From Marinobacter lutaoensis (GTDB taxonomy: Bacteria; Pseudomonadota; Gammaproteobacteria; Pseudomonadales; Oleiphilaceae), in the NCBI RefSeq assembly GCF_001981305.1, contig NZ_MSCW01000005.1:372001-436000 (forward strand): 64,000 nucleotides of DNA. The letters run 5' to 3'. A program made the position numbers and the translations under genes. How positions within the stretch are numbered: position 1 is the first letter of the stretch; every line of letters starts with the position of its first letter. The notes below the pieces were generated by a model that saw nothing but the letters and a program-made list of their open reading frames with translations, did no database searches and had not been told where the DNA came from. This document shows, in pieces, positions 48,016 through 61,586 of this stretch.

Positions 48016-48984
48016 TTACCCGGGCAGGAAATCGATCGGGAAACGAACACGGCGAGTGCCGACCTCATCGGCACCGAAGTTGAACAGCCGTACACGCAGG
48101 GCAATCCGCTGTTCCAGTGCGGGATGGTCCAGCTCTGAGCTGACCACCTCGCAGGCGGACACCGACCCATCCGGCTCAATCACCAGCTCAAGCAGCACCT
48201 TGCCCCGCAGGGTCGGGTCCTGGCGAAGTTCGCGTTTGTACAGCGAATACAACACCGTCTTCTGGGCGTCGAACACCCGCCGGATGTTGCTCATACTGCG
48301 TTCCTTCGCCACCGGCGCCGCCGAAGCCATAACCGACTCCCGGACCGGTTCCGGTTCCGGCGCTGGCACCACCTCCCGAGCCCGATGACCGGCCACCGCC
48401 ACCGTCGCCTCGGGCACCGGTGGTGCCGCCCCAGGCCCACCACTGCCGGCCAGCACCTCCGCCGGTGCGGCTTCGGGCCCGGCCGGGGCGGCATCGTCCC
48501 GCAGGTTGGTCCGTAGCGACGGCCCCGCCCCCTGCCCTGGGGCTCTGAGCGCAGCCAGGCGCTCCTTCATGGCCAGCAGTCCAGACCGGGAAGCCACCTG
48601 GCGCGCCTGCTCTGGGCTCTGGGATACCGGCGCCGGTGGCCGTGGCACCGCAACCGGTTCGGACACCGTCGCGACCGGAGACGAGACCTCGATCTCGGTG
48701 GGTTCCGGCGGTGGCGCGGCCGGCGCTTCCGGTTCCGACACCACCGGCTCCGGCCTGGCCACCGGCTCCGGCGGCTGAATCAGACGTACCAGCTGGGGCG
48801 GCACCGTCTCCACCTCGGCCCGCTCCCGGGCCGGCAGTTCGACCCCCGGCAACCAGATCGCCGGCACCAGAAACACGGCGCACACCAGCGCCAGCAGCCC
48901 AAGGAAACGGCCCTGCTCCGACCGGTCCCGGGACCAAGGCAAGCTCGCCGTATCCGGACTGAACCCTTGCCCGGCCTCAGCCAT
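48016..48984 (-). CDS. TonB/AgmX-like periplasm-spanning protein
   Basis: 322 residues. Short cytoplasmic start, one membrane helix (FLGLLALVCAVFLVPAIWLPG, about 27-47), a long Pro/Ala/Glu-rich periplasmic stalk, and a C-terminal TonB-like domain of the AgmX/PglI type (about 235-322: IRRVFDAQKTVLYSLYKREL, GKVLLELVIEPDGSV, VRFPIDFLPG). It would carry conformational energy from the ExbB/ExbD motor across the periplasm. Last gene of the nine-gene operon, overlapping the second ExbD gene by eight bases. In Myxococcus the AgmX-type domain occurs in GltG and GltJ, so GltG-like is a reasonable label. Confidence 0.88.
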   Translation of the reverse strand: MAEAGQGFSPDTASLPWSRDRSEQGRFLGLLALVCAVFLVPAIWLPGVELPARERAEVETVPPQLVRLIQPPEPVARPEPVVSEPEAPAAPPPEPTEIEVSSPVATVSEPVAVPRPPAPVSQSPEQARQVASRSGLLAMKERLAALRAPGQGAGPSLRTNLRDDAAPAGPEAAPAEVLAGSGGPGAAPPVPEATVAVAGHRAREVVPAPEPEPVRESVMASAAPVAKERSMSNIRRVFDAQKTVLYSLYKRELRQDPTLRGKVLLELVIEPDGSVSACEVVSSELDHPALEQRIALRVRLFNFGADEVGTRRVRFPIDFLPG

Positions 48985-49459
48985 GGTCCACCTCCGGCTC
49001 GACCGCCAATCGTACTTGGCGGAAGTCGGCGTCGATGCAGGTGGACAGGATCCGGCGCAATACCCGGTAATCGGTATCCCGGGCTGCCAGCACCGTAATC
49101 GCCAGCCCCGTCGCCGGCACCACGGCCACCCCAGCACGCTGCCGCAGCAGGGCCTCGGACAGTCCGGCGAGCGGCCCCTCCTCGCTCTCCGTCAGCCGAT
49201 CCACTTCCCGCCCCTGCAACCGAACGCTGCGCCCCTCCAGCTCGACCGTCAACGCCTCGGCGGCCGGCTGCCCGGCGACAGCGTTGGGCAACGGGATTCC
49301 GGCGCGGTTCTCAAGGACCTTTACATCGGATGAGTTCACCATCAGGAAGAACACCAGCAGGGTGAAGATGTCCATCAGGGACACCAGGTTGAGTCCCCCG
49401 GCGGCGCGCCGATGGTCCGGCTGCCGGCGCAGACGCCGGGGTCTGTTCCGTGGTTTCAC
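48977..49459 (-). CDS. ExbD/TolR-type motor subunit with the conserved Asp
   Basis: 160 residues. Basic N-terminus, one membrane helix (LVSLMDIFTLLVFFLMV) and a periplasmic domain. Asp30 in SLMDIF sits where the proton-conducting Asp of TolR/ExbD lies. GTG start overlaps the stop of the preceding ExbD gene (GTGA), with GGAGG upstream. In an Agl-type system this would be the AglQ- or AglS-like subunit that conducts protons. Confidence 0.9.
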   Translation of the reverse strand: MKPRNRPRRLRRQPDHRRAAGGLNLVSLMDIFTLLVFFLMVNSSDVKVLENRAGIPLPNAVAGQPAAEALTVELEGRSVRLQGREVDRLTESEEGPLAGLSEALLRQRAGVAVVPATGLAITVLAARDTDYRVLRRILSTCIDADFRQVRLAVEPEVDHG

Positions 49460-49986
49460 GAGTCACCTCCCGGGCCGGCTTCCGGGATGGGCGCCAGAGT
49501 CCGGCCTTCCGGCGCATCCTGCAGCGCGATGTCCGGAAACAGCTCCCCCGGCACAACGCTGGCTGCCACCACCGCCGGATAAGTACGCAGGGTCTCCATC
49601 GCCCGGACCAGGGTCTGGTAATCGATGCCGCGGGCCACTTCCAGGGTAATACCGGTGGTGCCCGGATGCCCGGACTTGATTCCCCGCAACAGCCGCCTGA
49701 GACCGGCAAAGTCCTGCTGGCCGTCCCTGGCCGGCAGGACAGCCAGCGCCCCCCGCCCACGGTCGGCCACTGCCACCCCTTCGGGAAGCAGCGTGACCAC
49801 CAGATCCAGCGACCCCGGCTCGCTGCTCCCGGTCGGGGTCCACTCCGGGAATCGGAGCTCAATCACCCGCAGCTGGCTGAACACCATGCCCAGCAGCAGC
49901 ACCGGTACCAATACGATCATCAGGTTCAGGAACGGCGTGATATCCAGGTCCGGGGACAGACGCGTTCTCGGATGGCGACGCTTCAT
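49456..49986 (-). CDS. ExbD/TolR-type subunit with Asn at the proton site
   Basis: 176 residues, the first of two ExbD genes. LDITPFLNLMIVLVPVLLLG is the helix; the residue matching the ExbD/TolR Asp (TPFIDVM in ExbD) is Asn21 here. The periplasmic part is longer than usual and ends Gly/Pro-rich. ATG at 49986 has a GGGGGG site; the frame is open six codons further. A subunit without the Asp is expected to be structural within a heteromeric stator. Confidence 0.88.
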   Translation of the reverse strand: MKRRHPRTRLSPDLDITPFLNLMIVLVPVLLLGMVFSQLRVIELRFPEWTPTGSSEPGSLDLVVTLLPEGVAVADRGRGALAVLPARDGQQDFAGLRRLLRGIKSGHPGTTGITLEVARGIDYQTLVRAMETLRTYPAVVAASVVPGELFPDIALQDAPEGRTLAPIPEAGPGGDS

Positions 49987-50029
49987 CGGAACCCCCCGGC
50001 ACAAAAACCGACTCGGTACGATCCGGCCA

Positions 50030-50680
50030 TCAAGCCGGCACTCCGGACGCAGCGGCGGTATCGGACATAAGATTCAACAGCCGGACCCCAGCCATTTCGA
50101 AACTGTCGACGATCTCGTTGGTCCGGGTCTGCAACAGGGCGTGGAACATCAGTAACGGGATAGCGGACATCAACCCGAACGCGGTGGTGTTCATCGCCAC
50201 GGATATGCTGCCAGACAGCAAACTGGCCTTCTGGGAGGGGTCGGCCGCGGCCACGGCGGTGAACGCCGAAATCAGGCCGATGATGGTGCCCAGCAGCCCC
50301 AGCAGGGTCGCGATGTTGGCCAGGGTGGCCAGGTACTGGGTCCGCTTTTCCAGACGGGGCAGCACCTCCATCAACCCTTCTTCCATGGCGTACTCCACCT
50401 CCTCCCGACGGCTGTTCGCGAGCAGGCGACCGAGCCCGGCGGCCATGATCCGGCCGATGGCGCTGTCGGACTGGCTCGCGGCCTTCATGGCACGGCGGTA
50501 GTCGCCCTGACGCAGCAGGGGCAGGATTCCCTTCTCGAAGGTCACCCGGTTCCTGCGCCGGACGGACAGCAGGTACAGGAAGCGCTCCAGGCTGATGGCC
50601 AGCCCGAGGGCCAGGACACAGCCAATGGGGTACATGAAGATCCCCCCTTCCTGAAAAAATCGGATCATGGTTTCCAGCAT
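50030..50680 (-). CDS. MotA/TolQ/ExbB-type proton channel subunit
   Basis: 216 residues with three membrane helices (about 14-35, 112-136, 156-180). LATLLGLLGTIIGLISAF and AMNTTAFGLMSAIP are the conserved TolQ/ExbB motifs with the Thr residues lining the proton path. Forms the motor with the two ExbD proteins encoded downstream, 43 bases away. One TolQ plus two TolR is the AglR-AglQ-AglS composition. Start ATG with GGGAG upstream. Confidence 0.93.
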   Translation of the reverse strand: MLETMIRFFQEGGIFMYPIGCVLALGLAISLERFLYLLSVRRRNRVTFEKGILPLLRQGDYRRAMKAASQSDSAIGRIMAAGLGRLLANSRREEVEYAMEEGLMEVLPRLEKRTQYLATLANIATLLGLLGTIIGLISAFTAVAAADPSQKASLLSGSISVAMNTTAFGLMSAIPLLMFHALLQTRTNEIVDSFEMAGVRLLNLMSDTAAASGVPA

Positions 50681-50707
50681 GTCGGTTCTCCCATGGTGAC
50701 AGCACGG

Positions 50708-51046
50708 TTACGGATGGCGCTCCGGGTACTCCAGCGTCAAGGGGTCGAGGCTGTCCCGAAAACGCCAGAGATTGTCGAAGGCCCGGGGATCCAGAAGTCC
50801 TTCCAGCTCCGGCGCCTGCTCGGGCAACGACGCCTCCGGGTGGCGCGGGAGCGTGGGGGCCTGCCAAGGCAGGATGAACAGCATTCGGGGATTATCCTCG
50901 CCGGGACGGGCAGCCAGCCCCTCGATGGTCAGCGCCGGGACCGCCGCCGTCCCGCTCACCGAGTCCGGCCCGGCGTAGGCCCAGGGTAATGGCAGCAGCC
51001 AGAGCAACAGCAGTCCGGTCAGTCTCCGGTGGGCTCTGCCGCTCAT
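50708..51046 (-). CDS. Small secreted protein of the ExbBDD-TPR operon
   Basis: 112 residues, not recognised. Signal peptide GLLLLWLLPLPWAYA; the mature part is about 85 residues, Pro- and Leu-rich, with MLFILPWQAPTLPR and FDNLWRFRDSLDPLTLEYP. No Cys, so not a lipoprotein. Overlaps the TPR lipoprotein gene by four bases and precedes the ExbB gene by 27, so it is an integral member of the operon. Confidence 0.75.
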   Translation of the reverse strand: MSGRAHRRLTGLLLLWLLPLPWAYAGPDSVSGTAAVPALTIEGLAARPGEDNPRMLFILPWQAPTLPRHPEASLPEQAPELEGLLDPRAFDNLWRFRDSLDPLTLEYPERHP

Positions 51047-51513
51047 GGCGCCAGCCTCCGTTCCAGGTCGGCGACCCAACCCGCCACGTCAGGCGCGTCG
51101 TCCCCGGTCAAATCAAGGTACGCCCGGTAATGAACCAGGGCGCAGTCCAGTTGCAGCAGGTACAGCTCGCAGAGGACCGCCAGGTTGTAGTGGAGGTCCG
51201 GCACCCCGGGCGAATGGCGGATGCCGTCGTCGAGCAGTCGCGCGGCCTCGGCGTAGCGATGCCGTTCCGCCAGCGCCAGGGCGAGATTGTTCACCGCCAC
51301 GGCATCCTGCGGATTGAGCGCCACCGCCTGCTGCCAGGCGTCGATGGCGGCGTCCTCGCGCCCGGCCTGCCAGTCCAGGTCCCCTCGCCTGGCCAGCACC
51401 GACGCCCGATCCGGGTCCCGGGGCACGGCGGAACCACCGGTTTCCGGGGTTGCCGCGCAGCCCGCCAGCCACAGCAGGACCCCGAACACAGCCATGCGCT
51501 CACGCCCCGTCAT
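51043..51513 (-). CDS. TPR lipoprotein (GltE-like)
   Basis: 156 residues. The signal sequence ends in the lipobox LAGC at Cys19, so it is a lipoprotein; Ala-Ala follow, which suits transport to the outer membrane. Three TPR-like helical pairs follow (DAAIDAWQQAVALNPQD, VNNLALALAERHRYAEAARLL, DLHYNLAVLCELYLLQLD). GGAGGTGA precedes the ATG, and the gene overlaps the end of the 935-residue TPR gene by 14 bases. Size, lipidation and neighbours resemble Myxococcus GltE (AglT). Confidence 0.85.
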   Translation of the reverse strand: MTGRERMAVFGVLLWLAGCAATPETGGSAVPRDPDRASVLARRGDLDWQAGREDAAIDAWQQAVALNPQDAVAVNNLALALAERHRYAEAARLLDDGIRHSPGVPDLHYNLAVLCELYLLQLDCALVHYRAYLDLTGDDAPDVAGWVADLERRLAP

Positions 51514-54307
51514 TCGTCACCTCCGGGTGCCATTCCATCCAGCGTACCTGGCGTTGGTAGCGCCCAGGGTGCATCCGGGCCAGGGCCTCCAGGCTTTTGC
51601 CAATCCATTCGTCGTACCCGGTCTTCGTGATCCGTTGATGATTCGCCTCATGCAGGGCAATGGCCTCTTCCTCAAACGGGTAGGCTTCCTCCTCCAGCAG
51701 AACGCGGTACTGCAGGGCTTCCAGTTCATTCAGGCTCCCGGGCACCTCCGATGCCATCAGGTCCCGGGCCAGTTGCCGGTACAACTCGGCCCGGAGGAAC
51801 AGCACCTGTGAGCGGACCGCCTCGCCCCCCAGCCGTTCTGCTTGCTCCAAACGCTGCCGGACCGCCGCCAACGCACGTTCCTTGCGGGCCAGGGCGTCCT
51901 CGAGCGGCTGAACCAACGGCAAGGACCGGAACCGGTCCGCTGCCCGCCGGGCCAGCACCCATGCGCTGTCGGTGGCCCACGCCAGGGTCTGGTCGGAATG
52001 CCACGGGCTGTCCAGCTCGGCGCGCACCAGGGCTTCGTGCCAGGGTTCGGGTATCGCCTCGGTGGACAGCAGCCGATGCCTCAGACGCTGCAACCGGCGG
52101 TGATCCGGCCCCTCGATAGGCACCGGTGAGGTCGCCAGGTACTGGCGATAGAGTGCGTTACGGGCTTCGATGTCGCCGGCATCGTGGTACAGCTCCGCAG
52201 CCCGGAGCCGGTCCGGCCAGGGATTGGCCAGGTCACGGGCCCGAGCCAGCAGCTCATCGGCCGCACGCCGCGGCTGGCCGGAACGGCTGTAGGCAAGCAC
52301 CAGCTTGTCACGGATGCGGACCGCCAGCGGATGGTCCGGATAATCGTGACGAAACCGTTGCAGCTGATGGATGGCGTCCTGCCACTGCGACGCTCTAAGT
52401 AGGGTGTTGGCGGCATCAAAGCGGCCCTGAATGGCGACCTCCGACCCAGGCAGAACGGTTTCGATCCGCAGAAAGTGGGCCACTGCCAGCGGCACGTCAC
52501 CCTGATCCGCGGCCTGCGCGCCCTGATGGTAAATGGACTCGGCCAGTTGTCGGCGCAGCTTGGCCTCCTCCCTGGCCGCCTCCGTACCGGCGCCGTGGTG
52601 CAGGGCCAGGGCCTGCCGCCAGGCCCGCTCCGCCGATGCGAACGCGCCCGCGGCTTGCCGTACCCGGGCAGTCACCAGCCAGGCGGCGTAGCGCTCGCTT
52701 GGCTGCGCCAGGGGGTGGACCTGTACCCGCCGGGCATACACCTGCGCCCGGTTGCCGTTGCCCAGGGTCAACCACCGTCCGGCCACGTCCGCCAGGGCCC
52801 CGGTTCCCCGGGGATCGTCGGGGTAGGTTTCGGTAAACCGGTCCACCGCCGCCGACAGTGACACCAGGGCGAGGCTCTGATCCGCCGCGGCCAATCGCCC
52901 GACCCGATCGATCAGAACCCTGACTTCGGCCCAGGCCGAGTCCACCGCGGCATCATAGCCGGGAACCTGGTAGCCCGCCGTCCGGAAGGCCGCCAGCGCA
53001 GGCGCCTGCCGCCCCGCCCCCAGCCATGCATCGCCAGCCAGTCGCCAAAGGGGCCCCGGGGCCACCACTCGCATCGCCAGACGCTGGTATTCAGCGGCGG
53101 CCGGGGCGTACCACTCGGCGGCGCCGGCCAGGTCGCCAGCACGCCGGAGGGCTGAGGCGTTCACGTAGCGGGAGTCGGCCCAGGCACGGGCAAACCGGCG
53201 CCAGCGTTCCTGGTGTCGGGCGTCCAGGCGCCGGTACGCCGCGTCCTCCCGGTAAGCGGCGACGTAGTCCGCACGGGCGCCCTCCGCCCGGTCCGGCTGC
53301 CCCGCCGCCTGCCAGACCGAGATGATCTGGTCACGGAAATCCGGTACCGTCGGGTGTTGGGGATACCGGTTCACGAACGCCTGATTGACCGCCACTGCCT
53401 CCTCGAACCTCCCTTGCTGGGTGTAAACGTCGGCCAGCCGGTCGTACAGCAAGGCAGCCCAGGCCGGCAGCGTCGGAGCTCTGGCCAGCCAGGTATCCAG
53501 AGCGGCAACCCCGCCGGTGCGGGCGGCCATCATTGCCAACACCCGCAGGGTATCGTCGAGGGTATCGATGGAGGCTTCAGGCACCCGGGCCAGGCTTGGT
53601 GCATCCGGCAGGAACTGATCCAGTACCGCCATGAAGGTAATGGTGGCCCGCCTCCAAGCGGCTTCGCCCTGTTTGAACTGGCTCCAGCCCATCATGTAGC
53701 GGGCCTTGGCCTTCAGGTCCGGGCGGCCGGAGCCCGCCAGCAGCGCTTGGTAATGGCTCTCGGCCTTTGGGTACTGGCCGCCGGCGAAGGCCGCCTCGGC
53801 AATCCGGAACTGGGCCTCCGGCACCAGCGGAGAGTCGGGATACAGTCCCACCAGCTGCTCAAGCCGCTCGACGGACCGGCCGGGTTGTCCGGTCAGAGCA
53901 TACGCCTTAGCCATTTGATACAGCAGTTCATCAAGTCGCCCGGAAAACGCCCCCCGGGACAGGATGGCCTCGTAGCTGGCCAGTGCGTCCCGGTACAACC
54001 CAACTTCCTGTTCGGCGGAAAGGCCGAGCTCCAGGCCGGAACGGTCACGGATCTGGGCCAGCCGGTTGAGCGCATCAACCCGCACTTCGGGCTCGCCGGA
54101 GGTCTCAAACAGGCGGCGATAACGACGCGCGACTTCTTCCGGCGAGATGGCCGGCAAGGGGCGGTTCTCAAAGGTCAGGAACACGGGGTGCATGTCGGCC
54201 AGGGTTTCACCGTCACGGCCAAGTTCAACGCGGAAGGACTCCTGGCCCGCGGCCGGCCCGGCCAGCATCAGAACAAGCAGCAGTACTGGGGAAACCGGCC
54301 GCTTCAC
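51500..54307 (-). CDS. Large periplasmic TPR protein (GltD/AgmU-like)
   Basis: 935 residues with a signal peptide (VLLLVLMLAGPAAGQ) and TPR-type helical repeats over most of its length (for example LDELLYQMAKAYALTGQPGR, PEAQFRIAEAAFAGGQYPKA, LADVYTQQGRFEEAVAVNQ). No membrane helix after the signal, so periplasmic. GTG start with GGAGG seven bases upstream, overlapping the preceding stop (GTGA). Resembles the long TPR protein GltD of the Myxococcus gliding machine in position and design; sequence identity could not be tested. Confidence 0.82.
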   Translation of the reverse strand: MKRPVSPVLLLVLMLAGPAAGQESFRVELGRDGETLADMHPVFLTFENRPLPAISPEEVARRYRRLFETSGEPEVRVDALNRLAQIRDRSGLELGLSAEQEVGLYRDALASYEAILSRGAFSGRLDELLYQMAKAYALTGQPGRSVERLEQLVGLYPDSPLVPEAQFRIAEAAFAGGQYPKAESHYQALLAGSGRPDLKAKARYMMGWSQFKQGEAAWRRATITFMAVLDQFLPDAPSLARVPEASIDTLDDTLRVLAMMAARTGGVAALDTWLARAPTLPAWAALLYDRLADVYTQQGRFEEAVAVNQAFVNRYPQHPTVPDFRDQIISVWQAAGQPDRAEGARADYVAAYREDAAYRRLDARHQERWRRFARAWADSRYVNASALRRAGDLAGAAEWYAPAAAEYQRLAMRVVAPGPLWRLAGDAWLGAGRQAPALAAFRTAGYQVPGYDAAVDSAWAEVRVLIDRVGRLAAADQSLALVSLSAAVDRFTETYPDDPRGTGALADVAGRWLTLGNGNRAQVYARRVQVHPLAQPSERYAAWLVTARVRQAAGAFASAERAWRQALALHHGAGTEAAREEAKLRRQLAESIYHQGAQAADQGDVPLAVAHFLRIETVLPGSEVAIQGRFDAANTLLRASQWQDAIHQLQRFRHDYPDHPLAVRIRDKLVLAYSRSGQPRRAADELLARARDLANPWPDRLRAAELYHDAGDIEARNALYRQYLATSPVPIEGPDHRRLQRLRHRLLSTEAIPEPWHEALVRAELDSPWHSDQTLAWATDSAWVLARRAADRFRSLPLVQPLEDALARKERALAAVRQRLEQAERLGGEAVRSQVLFLRAELYRQLARDLMASEVPGSLNELEALQYRVLLEEEAYPFEEEAIALHEANHQRITKTGYDEWIGKSLEALARMHPGRYQRQVRWMEWHPEVTNDGA

Positions 54308-55953
54308 GGCGATGCCTCCCCCAGCGTTTCCAGAGCCAGATATTCGTAAAGATGGGCGATGCGTTGCTCCGCCTTGCCCAAGGCGCGGGCCATCCGCTGG
54401 TCCTGCCGGTTCACGTAGTCGAACGCCAATGCGTCAAGGCGGGCTTCGGCCCGGCGACGAAGCTCGGAAACCTGTCGTAGGTATGCCTCGCCGAGCGTGC
54501 GATACTCGCCGATCCGCACCCGGGAATCGCCGTTACTAGCGGGCGCGGACAGGTCGTTCAGGGCATGAGCAGCCAGCACCAGGGACTGTTCCAACTCAAA
54601 CCACGGTCCCTGACGGGTGGCGGACACCTGGGTCCGGGCCGCCCGCACCCGTTCCAGAAGGGTCTGATTGCGGGCGCTCAGTTCGGGCAGTCGCCCCGCG
54701 TCGCCGTGGCCACGGGCCAAGGTTTCAGCGAACAGCGCGAGGTCACGACTGGTACCGATCAGTTGCTGTTCCAGGCCCTGAAGACGGGCCACGGCGGCCA
54801 CCGCCTGCTGGGCCTCCGGCTGTTCCAGGAAATCCAGAAGATAGGCCAGGCGTGGTTGCTGAAGCGTCCGGTTGTCGGCCAGGAACCATTCCACGTCATC
54901 GTTGCGGGCGGCCTGCACCAGGGCCGGATAGGCCCCCCGGTCATGGATGTCCCGGGCCAGGGTCCGTAAGGTTACCCGCTCGCTTTCGTATGCGGCATTC
55001 GCGGCGAGGTAGGCTTCCCCAGCCTGCCCCAGATAGCCGGCACGGTCGTAGCCCTGCCCCATGCCCAGCCACGCATCAGCGGCACCGGGATAGGCCAGCG
55101 GGAACTTACGGGCCCGGTGCCAACTCTGCATGGCTGCCCGATAGTTACCCTGAGCCATGCGAGCCAAGCCATGGAGGTATAAAGCCCGGGGCGTGGAGGT
55201 GCTGGTCAGGGACACTTGCTCCAGAAAGCCCAGGGCTTTGCCGGGATCGCCGTTGCGGTACGCCAGGTAGCCGGAACGTATCAGGATACGGTCGCGCAGC
55301 GCCTTGGCGCGTTCCGGCAGCGGGTCCTTGGCGGTCATGGCGAGCGCCACCCGCAGCGCCACCAGGGCCCGAGTCGGGCTCAGATCTTCCTCCGCGTAGT
55401 GACGGGCAAGGTTGACGTATCCCGACGCCGCCCAGTAACCCTCGGGCATCCGCGCCAGCCGGTCACCGGCCTGGTCCGCCTGGCCGGATCGCAGCGCCAG
55501 CATGGCGAGCTGATACAGCGCCTCCTGGGTCGCCGTCGCCGGACCCAAGCGGGCAGCCTGTTCGAACCGGTCCTGCGCCGAGGTCTGGTCGCCGTTGGCC
55601 AGCGCGGCGCGAGCCAGTACCAGGGCGGCTTCACCACGGTGCCAGGGGCCCTCAAGCACCTGCTGGAATTCTGCCAACGCCCGCTCACGGAAGCCGGCCT
55701 GGTACCAGGCCCGGGCCCGAAGAAAGGGAGCCGATGCGCCGGATAGCCCGGGCAGGTGTCGCAGGGCCTCCGGCAGATCGCCGGTGGCCAGCGCGTAACG
55801 AATACGCCCTTCCCTCAGCCGTTCGGGTGCTGGCGGCTCCGAGGCCGAAGCCGGCAGCATCAGCAGCATCAGCAGCCCCAGGGTGCCGCGACGAAACCAC
55901 TCTAGGCTCGAACCGGACACGGCGCCGTTACTTCCATTCGGTAAAGGTGACAC
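54304..55953 (-). CDS. Periplasmic TPR protein (GltC-like)
   Basis: 549 residues. A hydrophobic signal segment (TLGLLMLLMLPASAS) is followed by TPR-like helices (ALVLARAALANGDQTSAQ, EALYQLAMLALRSGQADQAG, LYLHGLARMAQGNYRAAMQ) and a helical C-terminus (RRRAEARLDALAFDYV, RALGKAEQRIAHLYEYL). GTG at 55953 gives the longest form, overlapping the upstream gene by 26 bases; GTG at 55920 just after the upstream stop is an alternative. Likely works with the adjacent TPR proteins. Confidence 0.8.
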   Translation of the reverse strand: MSPLPNGSNGAVSGSSLEWFRRGTLGLLMLLMLPASASEPPAPERLREGRIRYALATGDLPEALRHLPGLSGASAPFLRARAWYQAGFRERALAEFQQVLEGPWHRGEAALVLARAALANGDQTSAQDRFEQAARLGPATATQEALYQLAMLALRSGQADQAGDRLARMPEGYWAASGYVNLARHYAEEDLSPTRALVALRVALAMTAKDPLPERAKALRDRILIRSGYLAYRNGDPGKALGFLEQVSLTSTSTPRALYLHGLARMAQGNYRAAMQSWHRARKFPLAYPGAADAWLGMGQGYDRAGYLGQAGEAYLAANAAYESERVTLRTLARDIHDRGAYPALVQAARNDDVEWFLADNRTLQQPRLAYLLDFLEQPEAQQAVAAVARLQGLEQQLIGTSRDLALFAETLARGHGDAGRLPELSARNQTLLERVRAARTQVSATRQGPWFELEQSLVLAAHALNDLSAPASNGDSRVRIGEYRTLGEAYLRQVSELRRRAEARLDALAFDYVNRQDQRMARALGKAEQRIAHLYEYLALETLGEASP

Positions 55954-56464
55954 GGGGCTGGTAATCCGGCGCGGGGGCGGCCACGGTCAGTTCCACCACC
56001 AGGGCCCCGGGTGGTTTGATGAAGGACCGTACCGCCTCACGCCGGACGAAGGACTTGTCTGCCGCCCGGGCGGTAATCACCGCCTTGAGGCGGTGTTGGC
56101 CGGTGGCCAGGTTGCCGATGTAAAGTTCCTGGACGCCTCCGGCCTCCAGGGCGCTGCGTTCACGGTTCTGATACAGGTGCGAGGCCACCGGTTGATCATC
56201 CAGGAACAGCTCGATGGCATCCAGGTCCAGGGTTTCCCGCTCGGCCAGGGACAGGAATACGCTCAGGCGGGTGTGGGTGGGGTACAGCAGCTGGCGTTCC
56301 AGGGACCGCACCGACGCCAGGTGTTCATTGACCTGGGCCGACAGGGACTCAATATCGTCGTCGAGGCTGGCGGCAACGCCCGTGTGCGAGATCAGGGTTG
56401 CGGCGGCCCAGGCAAACCACCAGGGCCCCCGCCGGCATCTTGTTGTTGAGTGTAAGCCGTACAT
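55928..56464 (-). CDS. Secreted protein of unknown function, first gene of the operon
   Basis: 178 residues, not recognised. Basic start and a hydrophobic signal segment (GPWWFAWAAATLISHTGVAA), then a helical stretch SAQVNEHLASVRSLERQLL and a beta-rich part (LDAIELFLDDQPVASHLY, LYIGNLATGQHRLKAVITA) that looks like an immunoglobulin-like or similar domain. AGGAG stands five bases before the ATG. It opens the nine-gene ExbBDD-TPR operon and so is probably a dedicated component. Confidence 0.78.
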   Translation of the reverse strand: MYGLHSTTRCRRGPWWFAWAAATLISHTGVAASLDDDIESLSAQVNEHLASVRSLERQLLYPTHTRLSVFLSLAERETLDLDAIELFLDDQPVASHLYQNRERSALEAGGVQELYIGNLATGQHRLKAVITARAADKSFVRREAVRSFIKPPGALVVELTVAAPAPDYQPRVTFTEWK

Positions 56465-56795: not shown

Positions 56796-57974
56796 CTACT
56801 TGCTGAGGTACCGCATAGCCGATTCCAGGCCCTCGAGGGTCAGCGGGTACATATGGTCGCCAACCAGCTGGCGGGTCATCCCGAGCGAGCCGCCACTGCC
56901 CCAGTAGGCTTCCGGCAGAGGGTTAAGCCAGACCACCTTACGGAAATGATCGGTGATGCGCTGGAACCAGGTCGCGCCCGCTTCCTCGTTCCAGTGCTCG
57001 ATTGAGCCGCCGGGATGGGAAATTTCATACGGCGCCATGGTGGCGTCGCCAACGAAGATCACTTTGTAATCCGGGGTGTACTTGTGGAGGATGTCCCAAG
57101 TACTGGTGGTCTCGTTCATGCGGCGGATATTGCTCTTCCACACACTCTCGTAGATGAAATTGTGGAAGTAAAAATACTCCATGTGCTTGAACTCGAGTCG
57201 AGCCGCCGAGAACAGCTCCTCGCAAACCCGGATGTGCGGATCCATGGAGCCGCCGACATCGAAGAAGATCAGCACCTTCACCGCGTTGTGGCGTTCGGGC
57301 ACCAGCTTCAGATCCAGATAACCGGCGTTACGGGCCGTTGAACGGATGGTGTCGTCCAGATCCAGCTGGTCCGCCGCACCCTGTCGGGCGAATTTGCGCA
57401 GACGGCGCAGGGCAACCTTGATGTTGCGGATACCAAGGGTGATGCTGTCGTCCAGGTCCTTGTATTCCCGCTTCTCCCAGACCTTGACCGCCCGGCCCTG
57501 GCGGCCACTTTTCTGGCCGATCCGGAAGCCTTCCGGGTTGTACCCGTTGGCGCCGAATGGCGAGGTGCCACCGGTACCGATCCACTTGTTGCCACCGGCG
57601 TGGCGTTCCTTCTGCTCCTCCAGGCGCTTTTTGAAGGTCTCGATCAGTTCCTCGAGCCCCCCCAGAGAGTCGATCCGGGCCTTTTCCTCCTCACTGAGGT
57701 ACTTCTCGAACTCCGCCCGCAGCCAGTCGTCGGGAATCAGGGCTTGCAGCAGGTCGTCCAGGTGCTCGATTCCCTCGAAGTAAGCCTTGAAGGCCCGGTC
57801 GAACTTGTCAAAATGCCGCTCGTCCTTGACCAGGCAGACACGGGCGAGATAGTAGAACTCCTCCATGTCCGCGAACGCCAGGCGCTTCTGCAGCGCCTCA
57901 AGCAAATCCAGAAACTCGCGCAGACTGGCGGGCACCTTGGCCCGCCGCACTTCGAGGAAGAAATCGATCAGCAT
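56796..57974 (-). CDS. CoxE-like VWA domain protein
   Basis: 392 residues, no signal peptide, cytoplasmic. An N-terminal helical region (LREFLDLLEALQKRLAFAD) is followed by a charged linker and a C-terminal von Willebrand A domain with a metal-ion site motif VLIFFDVGGSMDPHI; the D-x-G-x-S form is kept although the usual DxSxS first Ser is Gly. This architecture is that of CoxE/YehP-like partners of MoxR ATPases, and the MoxR gene directly precedes it (22 bases). Likely a chaperone pair that matures a metalloenzyme or envelope complex; target unknown. Confidence 0.87.
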   Translation of the reverse strand: MLIDFFLEVRRAKVPASLREFLDLLEALQKRLAFADMEEFYYLARVCLVKDERHFDKFDRAFKAYFEGIEHLDDLLQALIPDDWLRAEFEKYLSEEEKARIDSLGGLEELIETFKKRLEEQKERHAGGNKWIGTGGTSPFGANGYNPEGFRIGQKSGRQGRAVKVWEKREYKDLDDSITLGIRNIKVALRRLRKFARQGAADQLDLDDTIRSTARNAGYLDLKLVPERHNAVKVLIFFDVGGSMDPHIRVCEELFSAARLEFKHMEYFYFHNFIYESVWKSNIRRMNETTSTWDILHKYTPDYKVIFVGDATMAPYEISHPGGSIEHWNEEAGATWFQRITDHFRKVVWLNPLPEAYWGSGGSLGMTRQLVGDHMYPLTLEGLESAMRYLSK

Positions 57975-57996
57975 AGCTTGGCGCCCCAGGCCCGGA

Positions 57997-58839
57997 TCAG
58001 CTGCGACGGCGGGCCATGAAGGCCAGCTTCTGCAACAGGTGCACGTCCTGCTCGTTCTTCACCAGCGCGCCGTACAGCGGCGGCAGCGCCGAGCTGCTGT
58101 CCTTTTCCTGCAGTGCCTTGGCGGACAGCTCGTCGGCCATCAGCAGCTTCAGCCAGTCGATCAGTTCGGAGGTGGACGGTTTCTTCTTCAAGCCGGGGAC
58201 CTTGCGCACGTCGAAGAACACCTCCAGGGCATCCCGGACCACCTCCTGTTGCAGGTTCGGGAAATGAACGTCGACGATGCTCTTCATGGTCTCGTGATCG
58301 GGGAAGCTGATGTAGTGGAAGAAACAACGGCGCAGGAAGGCATCCGGCAGTTCTTTTTCGTTATTGCTGGTGATGACGACGATGGGCCGGTGCTTGGCGC
58401 GGATGGTTTGCTGGGTTTCATACACGAAGAACTCCATCCGGTCCAGCTCCAGCAGCAGGTCGTTGGGGAACTCGATGTCGGCCTTGTCGATCTCGTCGAT
58501 CAGCAGCACCACTGGCTCGTCCGACTCGAACGCTTCCCAGAGTTTGCCCTTAACGATGTAATTGCGAATGTCCTTGACCTTTTCATCGCCCAGCTGGGAA
58601 TCCCGCAGGCGGGACACCGCGTCGTACTCGTACAGCCCCTGCTGCGCCTTGGTGGTGGACTTGATGTGCCAGGAGATGAGCCTCATGCCGAGGGCGGCGG
58701 CCATTTCCTCCGCCAGCAGGGTCTTGCCGGTTCCGGGCTCCCCCTTGATCAGCAGCGGCCGCTGCAGTGCAATCGCCGCGTTGACCGCCATCTGCAGGTC
58801 ATCGGTGGCTACGTATTTGTCGGTGCCAGTAAACTTCAT
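57997..58839 (-). CDS. MoxR-family AAA+ ATPase
   Basis: 280 residues. Walker A GEPGTGKTLLAEE (about 33-40), Walker B VVLLIDEIDKADIEF, sensor ITSNNEKELPDAFLRRC with arginine finger. MoxR ATPases act with VWA proteins as chaperones. The start ATG (58839) follows the VWA-membrane protein stop by four bases and precedes the CoxE-like gene. The frame is open upstream but the extension is low-complexity and overlaps the previous gene. Confidence 0.94.
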   Translation of the reverse strand: MKFTGTDKYVATDDLQMAVNAAIALQRPLLIKGEPGTGKTLLAEEMAAALGMRLISWHIKSTTKAQQGLYEYDAVSRLRDSQLGDEKVKDIRNYIVKGKLWEAFESDEPVVLLIDEIDKADIEFPNDLLLELDRMEFFVYETQQTIRAKHRPIVVITSNNEKELPDAFLRRCFFHYISFPDHETMKSIVDVHFPNLQQEVVRDALEVFFDVRKVPGLKKKPSTSELIDWLKLLMADELSAKALQEKDSSSALPPLYGALVKNEQDVHLLQKLAFMARRRS

Positions 58840-58843
58840 GATC

Positions 58844-60796
58844 TCATTCCTGCGGATTGTTCTTTGGTTTCTCGTCGTCGGCCCCGGAGGTCCGTGTCCC
58901 CTCGTCGTCCGGCGCCTCGTCCTCATCGTATCCGGGCAGGTCGTCGAACTCGGACAGGTCGAAATCCTCCAGGCCGAACTCCTCGTCTTCCTCCGGTTCC
59001 GGCTCAGGCTCGGCATCCGGTTCGGTCTCCGGCGCCACCACTTCGTCGGCCACCGGAATCGTGTCTTCCGCCACAGCCTCCTCGGGCGCCGCAGTCTGGC
59101 TGTCTGTCGGTTCCGGTTCGGCAACGTCCGTCACCTCCGGGATGACCTCGGGCTCCGGTTCAGGTTCTTCGGCCCGTTCCGGGGCCGGGACCTCCGCCGC
59201 ATCGGCCACCGGCGACCGGGAGGCCGTCTCCGTTGCCCGCCCCCGCCGGCGCAGGAGAACCACCAGCACGCCCGCAACGACCAGAACGCCGGCTCCCCCA
59301 GCGGCGAGCCACGGCAACCAAGCAGTCAGGCCCGGTTCCTCTGCATTGCCCGGGTGTTCCGGAGCCGGCGCGGCCACCTCCGGGAGTGGCTCCGGTTCCG
59401 GCGGCGTCGCGTTTTCCACGTCCGCCACGTCGATGGGCGCAGGAATCGCCGCTTTGGGTGCCGGAACCGGCGGCGACGGCTCCGGGAGGTTCCCGGCCAC
59501 CGGCGCCCCAGCGCCGACGTCAGTCACTGCCTCCGGTACCCGATACTCGAGCAGGCCGGTGAACTTGCGGGCGAAGGTGCGGCCATCCGCGACCACTTCC
59601 ACTTGGTAACGCCCGGGTTCCGGGAGCTGGGTAATCCGGTCATGGTAGACGCCGTCGGCCGGTACCGTCTCGGGCGACAGCATCTTGGTGCCCCTGCGAC
59701 CGTCCTCGGACACCAGGGTCAGGCTGACGCTCACCACCTGAAGGAAGTCCGGATTGGTGATCTTCTCTTCGCCTTCGAAAAACGCCACCTCGATGTCTAC
59801 CGGCTGCTCCGCCGTGAAGCTGGGCGGCAGGTCGGCCACCCTCATGTTCAGGTCACTGACCACGGTGACCCGACTGCCTTCGCCCAGGGTGCCGTCGATC
59901 TGCCAACGACCGGCCTGTGGCCCGGTCACGGTCACCAGGTCATAACCGGCCTCCCGCACCCAGCGGACGTTGTCCGGGTGCTGGTCCAGCGCCATCGTGG
60001 TCTGATCCGGCCGGACCAGAGACAACTGCCGGGACGCAGAAGTTTCCGACTCGCCCCAAAAGATCAGCGCGGTGAACTCACGGACGCCGGAGTCGACCAG
60101 AAAGCCGTCGTTTTCAATAGGGATCTGGGGTTGAGGGGCCGCAGTGTTCAGGGCTTCCAGAAAGGCGCGGTTGAGCGCCTCGGCGTCCTTGGCAATATGG
60201 AAACTGCCACCGGAGGCCGTGGCCAGGCGCCGGAGAAAGTCGGCATCGGCCTGGTCGGACAGGGCGACGGGGTGGAAGGTGGCACCGCGGGCGACCAAGT
60301 CTGGCACCAGGGTCTCCAGAATTCGCTGTTCTTCGGCCTGGTTCGCCGCCGGGTCGTCGGCAATGTCCACCCGGCCGTCCGTCAGCAGGATGAAATGGGT
60401 ATTGTCCAGACGACCGCCGGTGTAGTAATCGTCGCTGGCCACCTCAATCGCACCCCCCAGGTTGGTGCGCAGCGCCACCGAGTTGATCTGGCCGGAACGT
60501 TCGATGGCCAGCTGGCGCCAGGCCTCAGTGACCTGGCGATGGGGTACCAGCATGTTGACATACTGGCCGAAGGTCCAAAGCCCGGCGGTGTCGCCGTCGG
60601 GCAGCAGGCGCGCCAGCAGACGCACCGCCGGCCGCCTCAGGTTGTCGGGGTCGGTCTGTTTCATTGAACCGGAGATGTCGACAATCATCCGGATATCCGA
60701 CCGTTCCGGCACCGCCACCGGCTCACCGGCCTTCGCCAGGGTGGCCAGGGTCAGGAAGAGCCAGAGCGGGTACCCCCGCGACAGGACGAACCGCAT
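58844..60796 (-). CDS. Membrane-anchored VWA protein with acidic tail
   Basis: 650 residues. Signal peptide (LWLFLTLATLAKA), a VWA domain (about 32-205) with the full metal-ion motif MIVDISGSMKQ and FILLTDGRVD, a beta-rich periplasmic region, a Pro-rich linker, one membrane helix (LAAGGAGVLVVAGVLVVLL, about 517-536), then a very acidic cytoplasmic tail of about 110 residues. The tail resembles the acidic part of FimV in composition. Overlaps the gene before it by one base. With MoxR and CoxE-like proteins it forms a MoxR-VWA module; function unknown. Confidence 0.87.
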   Translation of the reverse strand: MRFVLSRGYPLWLFLTLATLAKAGEPVAVPERSDIRMIVDISGSMKQTDPDNLRRPAVRLLARLLPDGDTAGLWTFGQYVNMLVPHRQVTEAWRQLAIERSGQINSVALRTNLGGAIEVASDDYYTGGRLDNTHFILLTDGRVDIADDPAANQAEEQRILETLVPDLVARGATFHPVALSDQADADFLRRLATASGGSFHIAKDAEALNRAFLEALNTAAPQPQIPIENDGFLVDSGVREFTALIFWGESETSASRQLSLVRPDQTTMALDQHPDNVRWVREAGYDLVTVTGPQAGRWQIDGTLGEGSRVTVVSDLNMRVADLPPSFTAEQPVDIEVAFFEGEEKITNPDFLQVVSVSLTLVSEDGRRGTKMLSPETVPADGVYHDRITQLPEPGRYQVEVVADGRTFARKFTGLLEYRVPEAVTDVGAGAPVAGNLPEPSPPVPAPKAAIPAPIDVADVENATPPEPEPLPEVAAPAPEHPGNAEEPGLTAWLPWLAAGGAGVLVVAGVLVVLLRRRGRATETASRSPVADAAEVPAPERAEEPEPEPEVIPEVTDVAEPEPTDSQTAAPEEAVAEDTIPVADEVVAPETEPDAEPEPEPEEDEEFGLEDFDLSEFDDLPGYDEDEAPDDEGTRTSGADDEKPKNNPQE

Positions 60797-61140
60797 CAGC
60801 GCCGCACCAGCCGGTAACGCACCAGATCCAGAACCCAGACCAGGAGCATGACCAGTCCCGCGATGGCGAAGTTGAAGAAGGCACGGCTGGCCTCCGCCAG
60901 GTCGCCCAGGACCATTTCATAGCCACCGAACAGCCAAGCGGGCATCCACCAGCCGTGGACATCCGGCGACTCGACGGGCGTCAGCAGCAAGACCACCAGC
61001 GCCGCCAGCAGCAAGGTGCGCACGCCGTACACCGGAATCCACCGGAACAGCAATTTCATCATGTAGAAAAACACTACGAAGGCAACGACATAGGCGGTCC
61101 AGAATATGCCGTAGGCCAGTTGTGTATCCGCATCGATCAT
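60796..61140 (-). CDS. Small membrane protein of the MoxR-VWA module
   Basis: 114 residues with three predicted membrane helices (FWTAYVVAFVVFFYMMKLLF, VRTLLLAALVVLLLTPV, FFNFAIAGLVMLLVWVLDLV). Not recognised. ATG at 61140 overlaps the ycgN stop by four bases, and its own stop overlaps the VWA-membrane gene, so translation is coupled on both sides. Probably a membrane partner of the VWA protein. Confidence 0.8.
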   Translation of the reverse strand: MIDADTQLAYGIFWTAYVVAFVVFFYMMKLLFRWIPVYGVRTLLLAALVVLLLTPVESPDVHGWWMPAWLFGGYEMVLGDLAEASRAFFNFAIAGLVMLLVWVLDLVRYRLVRR

Positions 61141-61586
61141 GACAATACCCAATGAATGATGTGTTCCTCCCACTGCGCCTCGGGCACCGCATCCTCCGAC
61201 ACCGTGCGCCCCCGGACCGAGACCCCGGCCCGGTGGACGGAGTCCGGATCGCCACTGCGCAAGGGATGCCAGTCCGGCAACGGTCGGCCCTCCGCCAGGG
61301 TGCGATAGGCGCAGGTGTAAGGCAGCCAGTGGTAGTCGCCAACGGTGTCCGGCGTCAGCGTCGTACAGCCTGGCACATGCCGCGTTCGCTCCGGGTAAAC
61401 GGTGCAGCGACACGTGTCCGCATTCATAAACCGGCACGCCAGGTCGGTATGGTAAACCTCGCCGGTGTCGGCATCCTCCAGCTTGTTCAGGCAGCAGAGT
61501 CCACAGCCGTCACACAACGATTCCCATTCCGCCGCTGTCATCTCGTGCAAGCGCTTGCGCTGCCAGAACGGGATCTGGGCGATCAT
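61137..61586 (-). CDS. ycgN: UPF0260 protein YcgN
   Basis: 149 residues, Cys-rich CxxCxxCC family. MTAAEWESLCDGCGLCCLNKL and ACRFMNADTCRCTVYPER show the conserved cysteines that may bind a metal or cluster. Molecular role unknown. ATG overlaps the ycgL stop (ATGA). The ycgL-ycgN pair following rnd is as in many gammaproteobacteria. Confidence 0.94.
   Translation of the reverse strand: MIAQIPFWQRKRLHEMTAAEWESLCDGCGLCCLNKLEDADTGEVYHTDLACRFMNADTCRCTVYPERTRHVPGCTTLTPDTVGDYHWLPYTCAYRTLAEGRPLPDWHPLRSGDPDSVHRAGVSVRGRTVSEDAVPEAQWEEHIIHWVLS

What the first reader, a model, noticed from the sequence alone, without database searches (positions are those of the whole stretch)
48016..56464. Nine-gene ExbB-ExbD-ExbD-TonB/AgmX plus TPR operon resembling a minimal Agl-Glt machine
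Seen: one TolQ/ExbB protein, two ExbD/TolR proteins, an AgmX-type TonB-like protein, a TPR lipoprotein, two large secreted TPR proteins and two secreted unknowns, all overlapping or nearly so. Known: in Myxococcus, AglR (TolQ-like) with AglQ and AglS (TolR-like) powers the Glt gliding complex and the related Nfs spore-coat machine, which includes TPR proteins GltC/D/E and AgmX-domain proteins. I recall comparative work placing a reduced core in gammaproteobacteria. Inference: this operon is such a core and may move or export a surface polymer, or drive a form of gliding or adhesion, in an organism without the Myxococcus accessory genes.
Basis: partly seen in the sequence, partly recalled or inferred. 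Interest (0 to 1): 0.8.

Follow-up and report, generated by a model that had tools for sequence, protein, structure and literature searches.

The report
Envelope machine that shares its motor
A nine-gene operon in a Marinobacter genome encodes a predicted proton-driven cell-envelope machine of a family related to the Myxococcus gliding engine; some relatives have lost its motor genes but kept the rest, and a few of those keep a sister motor whose own machine is gone, so one motor likely drives more than one machine.

Summary
In detail: nine packed minus-strand genes (secreted helix/sandwich protein, two large TPR proteins, TPR lipoprotein, small secreted protein, ExbB, ExbD, ExbD, AgmX-type TonB-like protein). 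By domains and order it is a gammaproteobacterial Agl-Glt 'core complex', a kind described in 2011 with Marinobacter named; the genus here is Marinobacter. So the operon itself is not new, and the gliding/polymer reading stays untested.

What is new lies in the relatives. Of 112 genomes of the genus, 87 carry this type; 12 (one clade) have lost ExbB-ExbD-ExbD but keep the rest under purifying selection, and all 12 carry the motor genes of a second, paralogous machine. In a subclade that second machine is gone and only its motor genes remain, conserved (ExbB dN/dS about 0.04). Motorless loci also recur in other gammaproteobacteria, mostly in genomes with a motored copy. The likely reading is a motor shared in trans, as AglRQS serves Glt and Nfs in Myxococcus. 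A second oddity: 95 of 100 ExbD pairs have Asn/Asp at the ion-carrying position, which predicts an asymmetric axle.

The parts
55928..56464 (-). Secreted protein of 178 aa ('Sec178'): signal-peptide-like start (by eye), helix 28-60, beta-sandwich 66-177
   Evidence: ORF; no Pfam/NCBIfam match; relatives in 19 of 20 loci; AF2 model pLDDT 87.1
54304..55953 (-). Secreted TPR protein, 549 aa, in the place of GltC
   Evidence: weak TPR matches; position conserved; in some loci one open frame with a neighbour
51500..54307 (-). Large secreted TPR protein, 935 aa, in the place of GltD
   Evidence: TPR/YfiO matches; relatives in 43 of 185 genomes of the class; all-helical model, pLDDT 80.8
51043..51513 (-). 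TPR lipoprotein, 156 aa, in the place of GltE (lipobox LAGC, by eye)
   Evidence: TPR matches; GltE model only E=0.012, but 6.3e-11 for its relative in L057
50708..51046 (-). Small secreted protein, 112 aa, motif around E-x-P-x-VLYI(L/V)PW; at the place of GltF in the Myxococcus order
   Evidence: alignment of 36 relatives; no family match; Myxococcus order from PMC3169522 section 6
50030..50680 (-). ExbB/TolQ-type motor subunit (AglR-like), 216 aa
   Evidence: PF01618 105.6 bits
49456..49986 (-). First ExbD/TolR-type subunit; Asn at the ion-carrying position
   Evidence: PF02472 37.2 bits; column count
48977..49459 (-). Second ExbD/TolR-type subunit; Asp at the ion-carrying position
   Evidence: PF02472 44.5 bits; column count
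48016..48984 (-). TonB-like transducer with AgmX/PglI C-terminal domain (GltG-like, no FHA found), 322 aa
   Evidence: NF033768 59.4 bits over cut-off 40

Best explanation
The nine genes form a conserved operon whose products are predicted to build a proton-driven machine that spans the cell envelope, a gammaproteobacterial version of the Agl-Glt core, and its ExbB-ExbD-ExbD motor is likely an exchangeable module that sister machines can lend and borrow. Inferred working: the ExbB ring with an ExbD1/ExbD2 axle turns proton flow into motion; the AgmX/TonB-like protein touches the ring with its membrane helix and reaches through the periplasm; the TPR proteins, the small secreted protein and Sec178 carry the force to the outer membrane. 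Shown: gene content and order; a Marinobacter clade in which this operon lost exactly the three motor genes and kept the rest under purifying selection; the sister (type A) motor genes in every such genome found; survival of those motor genes, conserved, after their own machine was lost; Asn/Asp at the ion-carrying position of the two ExbD proteins. Inferred and untested: that the type A motor drives the type B machine, that the axle is a heterodimer with one protonatable site, and what the machine does at the surface.
For: Family and order. Motor loss: of 112 genus genomes, type B GltD is in 87; 12 of these lack the type B ExbD2, and 12 of 12 carry the type A ExbD2, against 29 of 75 with a type B motor (Fisher p=4e-5, not corrected for kinship); all 12 type B and all 12 type A loci were mapped; nine named motorless loci form one clade, 100/100, in a 41-row tree. 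Reciprocal loss: G264 (one-contig genome) has at its type A locus only ExbB-ExbD-ExbD plus a broken TonB, and a complete but motorless type B; G297 and the MAG G189 keep only the type A motor genes; the three form one subclade, 95/96. Genomes without the type A GltD keep the type A motor in 2 of 2 motorless and 1 of 47 motored cases (p=0.0026; sets). Selection: orphan ExbB dN/dS 0.04, ExbD1 0.10-0.14, ExbD2 0.085 (G264-G189); motorless TonB 0.14, GltD 0.11, close to the motored ones (0.17, 0.14). Outside Marinobacter: 6 of 8 multi-copy genomes examined have a locus lacking its motor genes and all 6 also hold a motored locus, against 1 motorless of 19 single-copy genomes examined (p=0.0006); at least 5 changes of state are forced on a tree of 82 loci. 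Precedent: AglRQS serves both Glt and Nfs (PMC3858216, passages). Axle: N/D in 95 of 100 pairs.
Against: The Marinobacter motor loss looks like one event and the orphan motors like one further event, so the counts are not independent. G245 keeps an orphan type A motor although its type B motor is present, so an orphan motor may serve something else there. G297 has a frame break near the end of its orphan ExbD2 (ExbD2 dN/dS 0.17-0.21 with that copy) and a split GltC-like gene. The membrane helix of the motorless TonB is hardly closer to type A overall (0.379 against 0.339 identity). G056 has a motorless locus and no second GltD locus; its other motors were not searched. Other MotA/ExbB-family proteins exist in all 16 Marinobacter genomes scanned (8-11 matches each) and could be the power source. 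The motorless loci outside Marinobacter also lack the TonB-like gene. No binding or function was measured.
Confidence: 0.66

Rival explanations
1. The operon is a standard Agl-Glt core with its own motor; the motorless relatives are powered by the cell's general TonB or Tol motor, and the orphan type A motors were kept for another use.
For: Each of 16 genomes scanned has 8-11 MotA/ExbB-family matches; G245 keeps an orphan type A motor while its type B motor is present.
Against: All 12 motorless genomes keep the type A motor genes, and the subclade that lost machine A kept precisely its motor, under strong purifying selection.
Confidence: 0.22
2. The machine needs no motor for its present role in the motorless clade; it has become a static envelope scaffold.
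For: Motorless loci without a TonB-like gene occur in several other lineages.
Against: In the Marinobacter clade the TonB-like transducer is kept at dN/dS 0.14, which a static scaffold would not predict.
Confidence: 0.1
3. It is a TonB-type uptake system for siderophores or polysaccharides (TtpC-like).
For: Weak TonB_C and ExbD family matches.
Against: TonB_C below cut-off, AgmX/PglI above; two ExbD genes; no receptor gene among the nine.
Confidence: 0.04

Closest known systems
Agl-Glt core complex of gammaproteobacteria (Luciano et al. 2011, PMC3169522)
   Same: AglR-, AglQ/S-, GltC/D/E/G-like genes in one cluster; Marinobacter named with duplicated clusters; an additional gene without Myxococcus homologue
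   Different: The parts of that paper that I saw do not report operons that lost their motor, orphan motors, or the Asn/Asp ExbD pair
Myxococcus xanthus Agl-Glt / Agl-Nfs (Wartel et al. 2013, PMC3858216, passages)
   Same: One Agl motor serving two paralogous output complexes in trans
   Different: Here two or three motor types occur within one genus, and the sharing is inferred from gene losses; no Group A gene recognised in the operon; no FHA found on the GltG-like protein; AglQ and AglS are both described as having the aspartate (PMC9389320, passage)
TonB-ExbBD, TtpC-type and Tol-Pal systems
   Same: ExbB/ExbD motor plus TonB-like transducer
   Different: AgmX/PglI C-terminus, two ExbDs, TPR proteins, no TolB/Pal or receptor match among the nine

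Membership tests
Agl-Glt core complex (Group B) | AglR-like ExbB with two ExbD/TolR genes side by side | tested here: met
Agl-Glt core complex (Group B) | GltG-like transducer with AgmX/PglI C-terminal domain | tested here: met
   NF033768 59.4 bits, cut-off 40; the GltG equivalog cut-off itself is not reached (41.6 of 650)
Agl-Glt core complex (Group B) | GltE-like TPR lipoprotein | tested here: inconclusive
   lipobox (by eye) and TPR present; GltE model E=0.012, far below its cut-off; relative in L057 6.3e-11
Agl-Glt core complex (Group B) | GltD- and GltC-like secreted TPR proteins homologous to the Myxococcus ones | tested here: inconclusive
   fitting size, place and repeats; no Myxococcus sequence could be compared
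Agl-Glt core complex (Group B) | Genes in one cluster in gammaproteobacteria | tested here: met
Agl-Glt core complex (Group B) | Falls in the clade of the Myxococcus sequences in gene trees | not tested
   no Myxococcus sequence was in the calls made
Myxococcus Agl-Glt gliding machine | Group A genes (GltA, B, F, H, I, J, K) with the core | tested here: not met
   none of the nine proteins matches an outer-membrane barrel family or reaches a Glt equivalog cut-off; a small protein sits at the GltF place but has no family match
Myxococcus Agl-Glt gliding machine | FHA domain on GltG | tested here: not met
   (protein 1: only a sub-cut-off TonB_C)
Myxococcus Agl-Glt gliding machine | Both ExbD-like subunits with the ion-carrying aspartate (as described for AglQ/AglS) | tested here: not met
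   first ExbD has Asn, second Asp; the Myxococcus state is taken from a review passage
Myxococcus Agl-Glt gliding machine | Drives gliding | not testable with these tools
   needs mutants
TonB/TtpC siderophore system | TonB_C domain over its cut-off and a receptor | tested here: not met
   18.4 bits against 24.6; no receptor match among the nine
Tol-Pal | TolB and Pal with TolQRA | tested here: not met
   no TolB or Pal match among the nine

The most novel reading that the evidence does not exclude
In gammaproteobacteria one Agl-type ExbB-ExbD-ExbD motor, with an asymmetric axle that carries a single protonatable aspartate, is a common power unit that drives several different Glt-like envelope machines in trans; operons such as this one repeatedly discard their own motor and survive on a sister's, and in some Marinobacter the sister machine has vanished and only its motor remains to run this one.
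Probability: 0.55. Interest if true: 0.76.

Novelty: new variant of a known kind. Interest (0 to 1): 0.62.

Why it matters
The function of the gammaproteobacterial Agl-Glt core was called unknown in 2011 (PMC3169522). The loss patterns give natural experiments in ordinary marine bacteria: strains in which motor and machine lie in different loci, so the motor can be removed without touching the machine's genes. They also say which genes are separable modules. The Asn/Asp ExbD pair, if it forms one axle, would be a test case for how 5:2 motors step, because a homodimeric axle cannot separate the roles of its two proton sites.
Full report
What is there. The window lies in a 3.83 Mb, 25-contig genome. 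Its GltD is 46-58% identical to that of 37 Marinobacter loci (31% to L113), and a same-genus genome, G236, has a contig of 1,276,166 bases, the length of the Marinobacter sp. DY40_1A1 contig behind L071, so the genus is taken to be Marinobacter.

What family. A GltD relative (E up to 1e-10) occurs in 43 of 185 genomes sampled from the class. Fetched loci show one gene order. Luciano et al. 2011 (PMC3169522; abstract, passages, sections 6, 12 and 25 seen) described this core, single-cluster in gammaproteobacteria, and named two Marinobacter among those with duplicates. The operon is therefore a member of a known kind at the level of domains and order. Direct comparison with Myxococcus proteins could not be made; the GltG, GltE and GltJ equivalog cut-offs are not reached.

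Two machines in one genome. The window's genome holds a second copy, 'type A', at G000:C1 (L039), preceded by relatives of an HZS-domain gene with CxxCH motifs, an SH3/outer-membrane-barrel gene and a DUF3570 gene; in other loci a second barrel matching TIGR04565 (6.5e-44 in L057) and a thioredoxin-like gene are present. The window's operon is 'type B'. A third ExbB type ('C') appears in the genus.

Motor loss. In the named loci, nine Marinobacter type B operons go from the small secreted protein to TonB with no ExbB or ExbD hit (four were looked at gene by gene, in L071 the two genes overlap). Across all 112 held genus genomes of at least 90% completeness, type B GltD is in 87, the type B motor in 75 of those, and 12 are motorless; all 12 have the type A motor; of the 75 motored ones, 29 have it, and 28 have neither the type A motor nor a type C GltD. 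Type A GltD was never found without the type A motor (0 of 41). The 12 type B and 12 type A loci were mapped one by one. In some of them Sec178 and the GltC-like protein lie in one open frame, but both are there. On a tree of 41 GltD proteins the nine named motorless ones form one clade, 100/100, and a second tree with more members agrees: a single loss, followed by spread over many species.

Reciprocal loss. In G264, a single-contig genome, the type A locus is reduced to ExbB-ExbD-ExbD and a broken TonB; tblastn (E up to 1e-3) finds no remnant of the other type A genes in that 19.5 kb stretch, and the genome has one GltD (type B, E up to 1e-30), one Agl-like ExbB (type A, E up to 1e-40) and no DUF3570. 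G297 and the MAG G189 also keep only the type A motor genes; in G297 the end of ExbD2 is out of frame. These three form a subclade, 95/96. G245 keeps a type A motor with a short TonB remnant although its type B motor is present. Pairwise dN/dS between orphan motors is 0.04 for ExbB, 0.10-0.14 for ExbD1 and 0.085 for the G264-G189 ExbD2 (0.17-0.21 with the G297 copy), at dS 0.6-1.5; the motorless type B genes show about the same constraint as motored ones. The simplest reading is that the type A motor is kept because it runs the type B machine.

Beyond Marinobacter. Of 8 other genomes with two or more GltD loci examined, 6 have a locus without the motor genes, and each of these 6 has a motored one; of 19 single-locus genomes examined (of 33), 1 (G056) is motorless (Fisher p=0.0006). 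On a tree of 82 loci, 16 of them motorless, at least 5 changes of state are forced by well-supported branches and parsimony needs 9. These satellites lack a TonB-like gene too, so they would have to borrow the transducer as well, or work otherwise. Wartel et al. 2013 (PMC3858216; passages) showed that the Myxococcus Agl motor serves both Glt and Nfs, so sharing has a tested precedent.

The axle. In 100 loci with both ExbDs, the residue at the ion-carrying position is Asn in the first and Asp in the second in 95, Asp in both in 5 (L108, L120, L124, L129, L132). The window has Asn/Asp. A review passage says that AglQ and AglS both have the aspartate and that it is not known whether they form heterodimers (PMC9389320). 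That the two ExbDs here share one axle is inference.

Not in print, as far as searched: in the open library listed no paper that I recognised as describing motorless or orphan-motor Glt cores, the Asn/Asp pair, or the DUF3570 link (PMC8238504 and PMC12204202 seen in passages only). Most subscription papers are not held.

Verdict. The operon is a known kind; the inferred motor sharing and the asymmetric ExbD pair are the new parts.

Noticed in passing
L057:13379-18993; DUF3570 also in L039, L040, L041, L046, L049, L052, L054 (8 of 20 loci with L057) and in 9 of the 80 loci L059-L138: Recurrent module just upstream of many cores: HZS-domain protein (2-3 CxxCH motifs in the eight of L059-L138), SH3+outer-membrane barrel, second barrel matching TIGR04565 (OMP_myx_plus), TlpA-like thioredoxin, DUF3570; class-wide, DUF3570 occurs in 35 of 43 GltD genomes against 10 of 142 others.
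   Followed up: partly
L098, L103, L106, L108, L110, L120, L124, L132, L055: A LamG protein (two CxxCH motifs in the eight counted) and a second exported protein with a twin-arginine-like start sit upstream of the core instead of the HZS module; I call the second one DUF1501-like from recall, Pfam gave no match for it.
   Followed up: no
L042, L043, L044, L119, L136; and L073, L074, L059, L060, L063: In the first five, GltC-like and GltD-like proteins make one chain of about 1400-1520 aa; in the other five, Sec178 and the GltC-like protein lie in one open frame.
   Followed up: partly
window 51500-54307: The window's GltD-like protein has a signal-peptide-like start but no lipobox cysteine (by eye), whereas relatives such as L045, L049 and L055 have one.
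   Followed up: no
window 56796-61437: CoxE-like VWA, MoxR ATPase, a large acidic-tailed VWA protein and a 213-aa unknown; the CoxE-like gene is beside the operon in 36 of 37 Marinobacter type B loci and three outside loci, probably shared synteny.
   Followed up: partly
L182, L183 (G237, G234): A third core type ('C') in Marinobacter with two barrel genes transcribed divergently from it.
   Followed up: no
L084: Most genes of this Marinobacter similis locus appear split in two, which looks like sequencing frameshifts.
   Followed up: no
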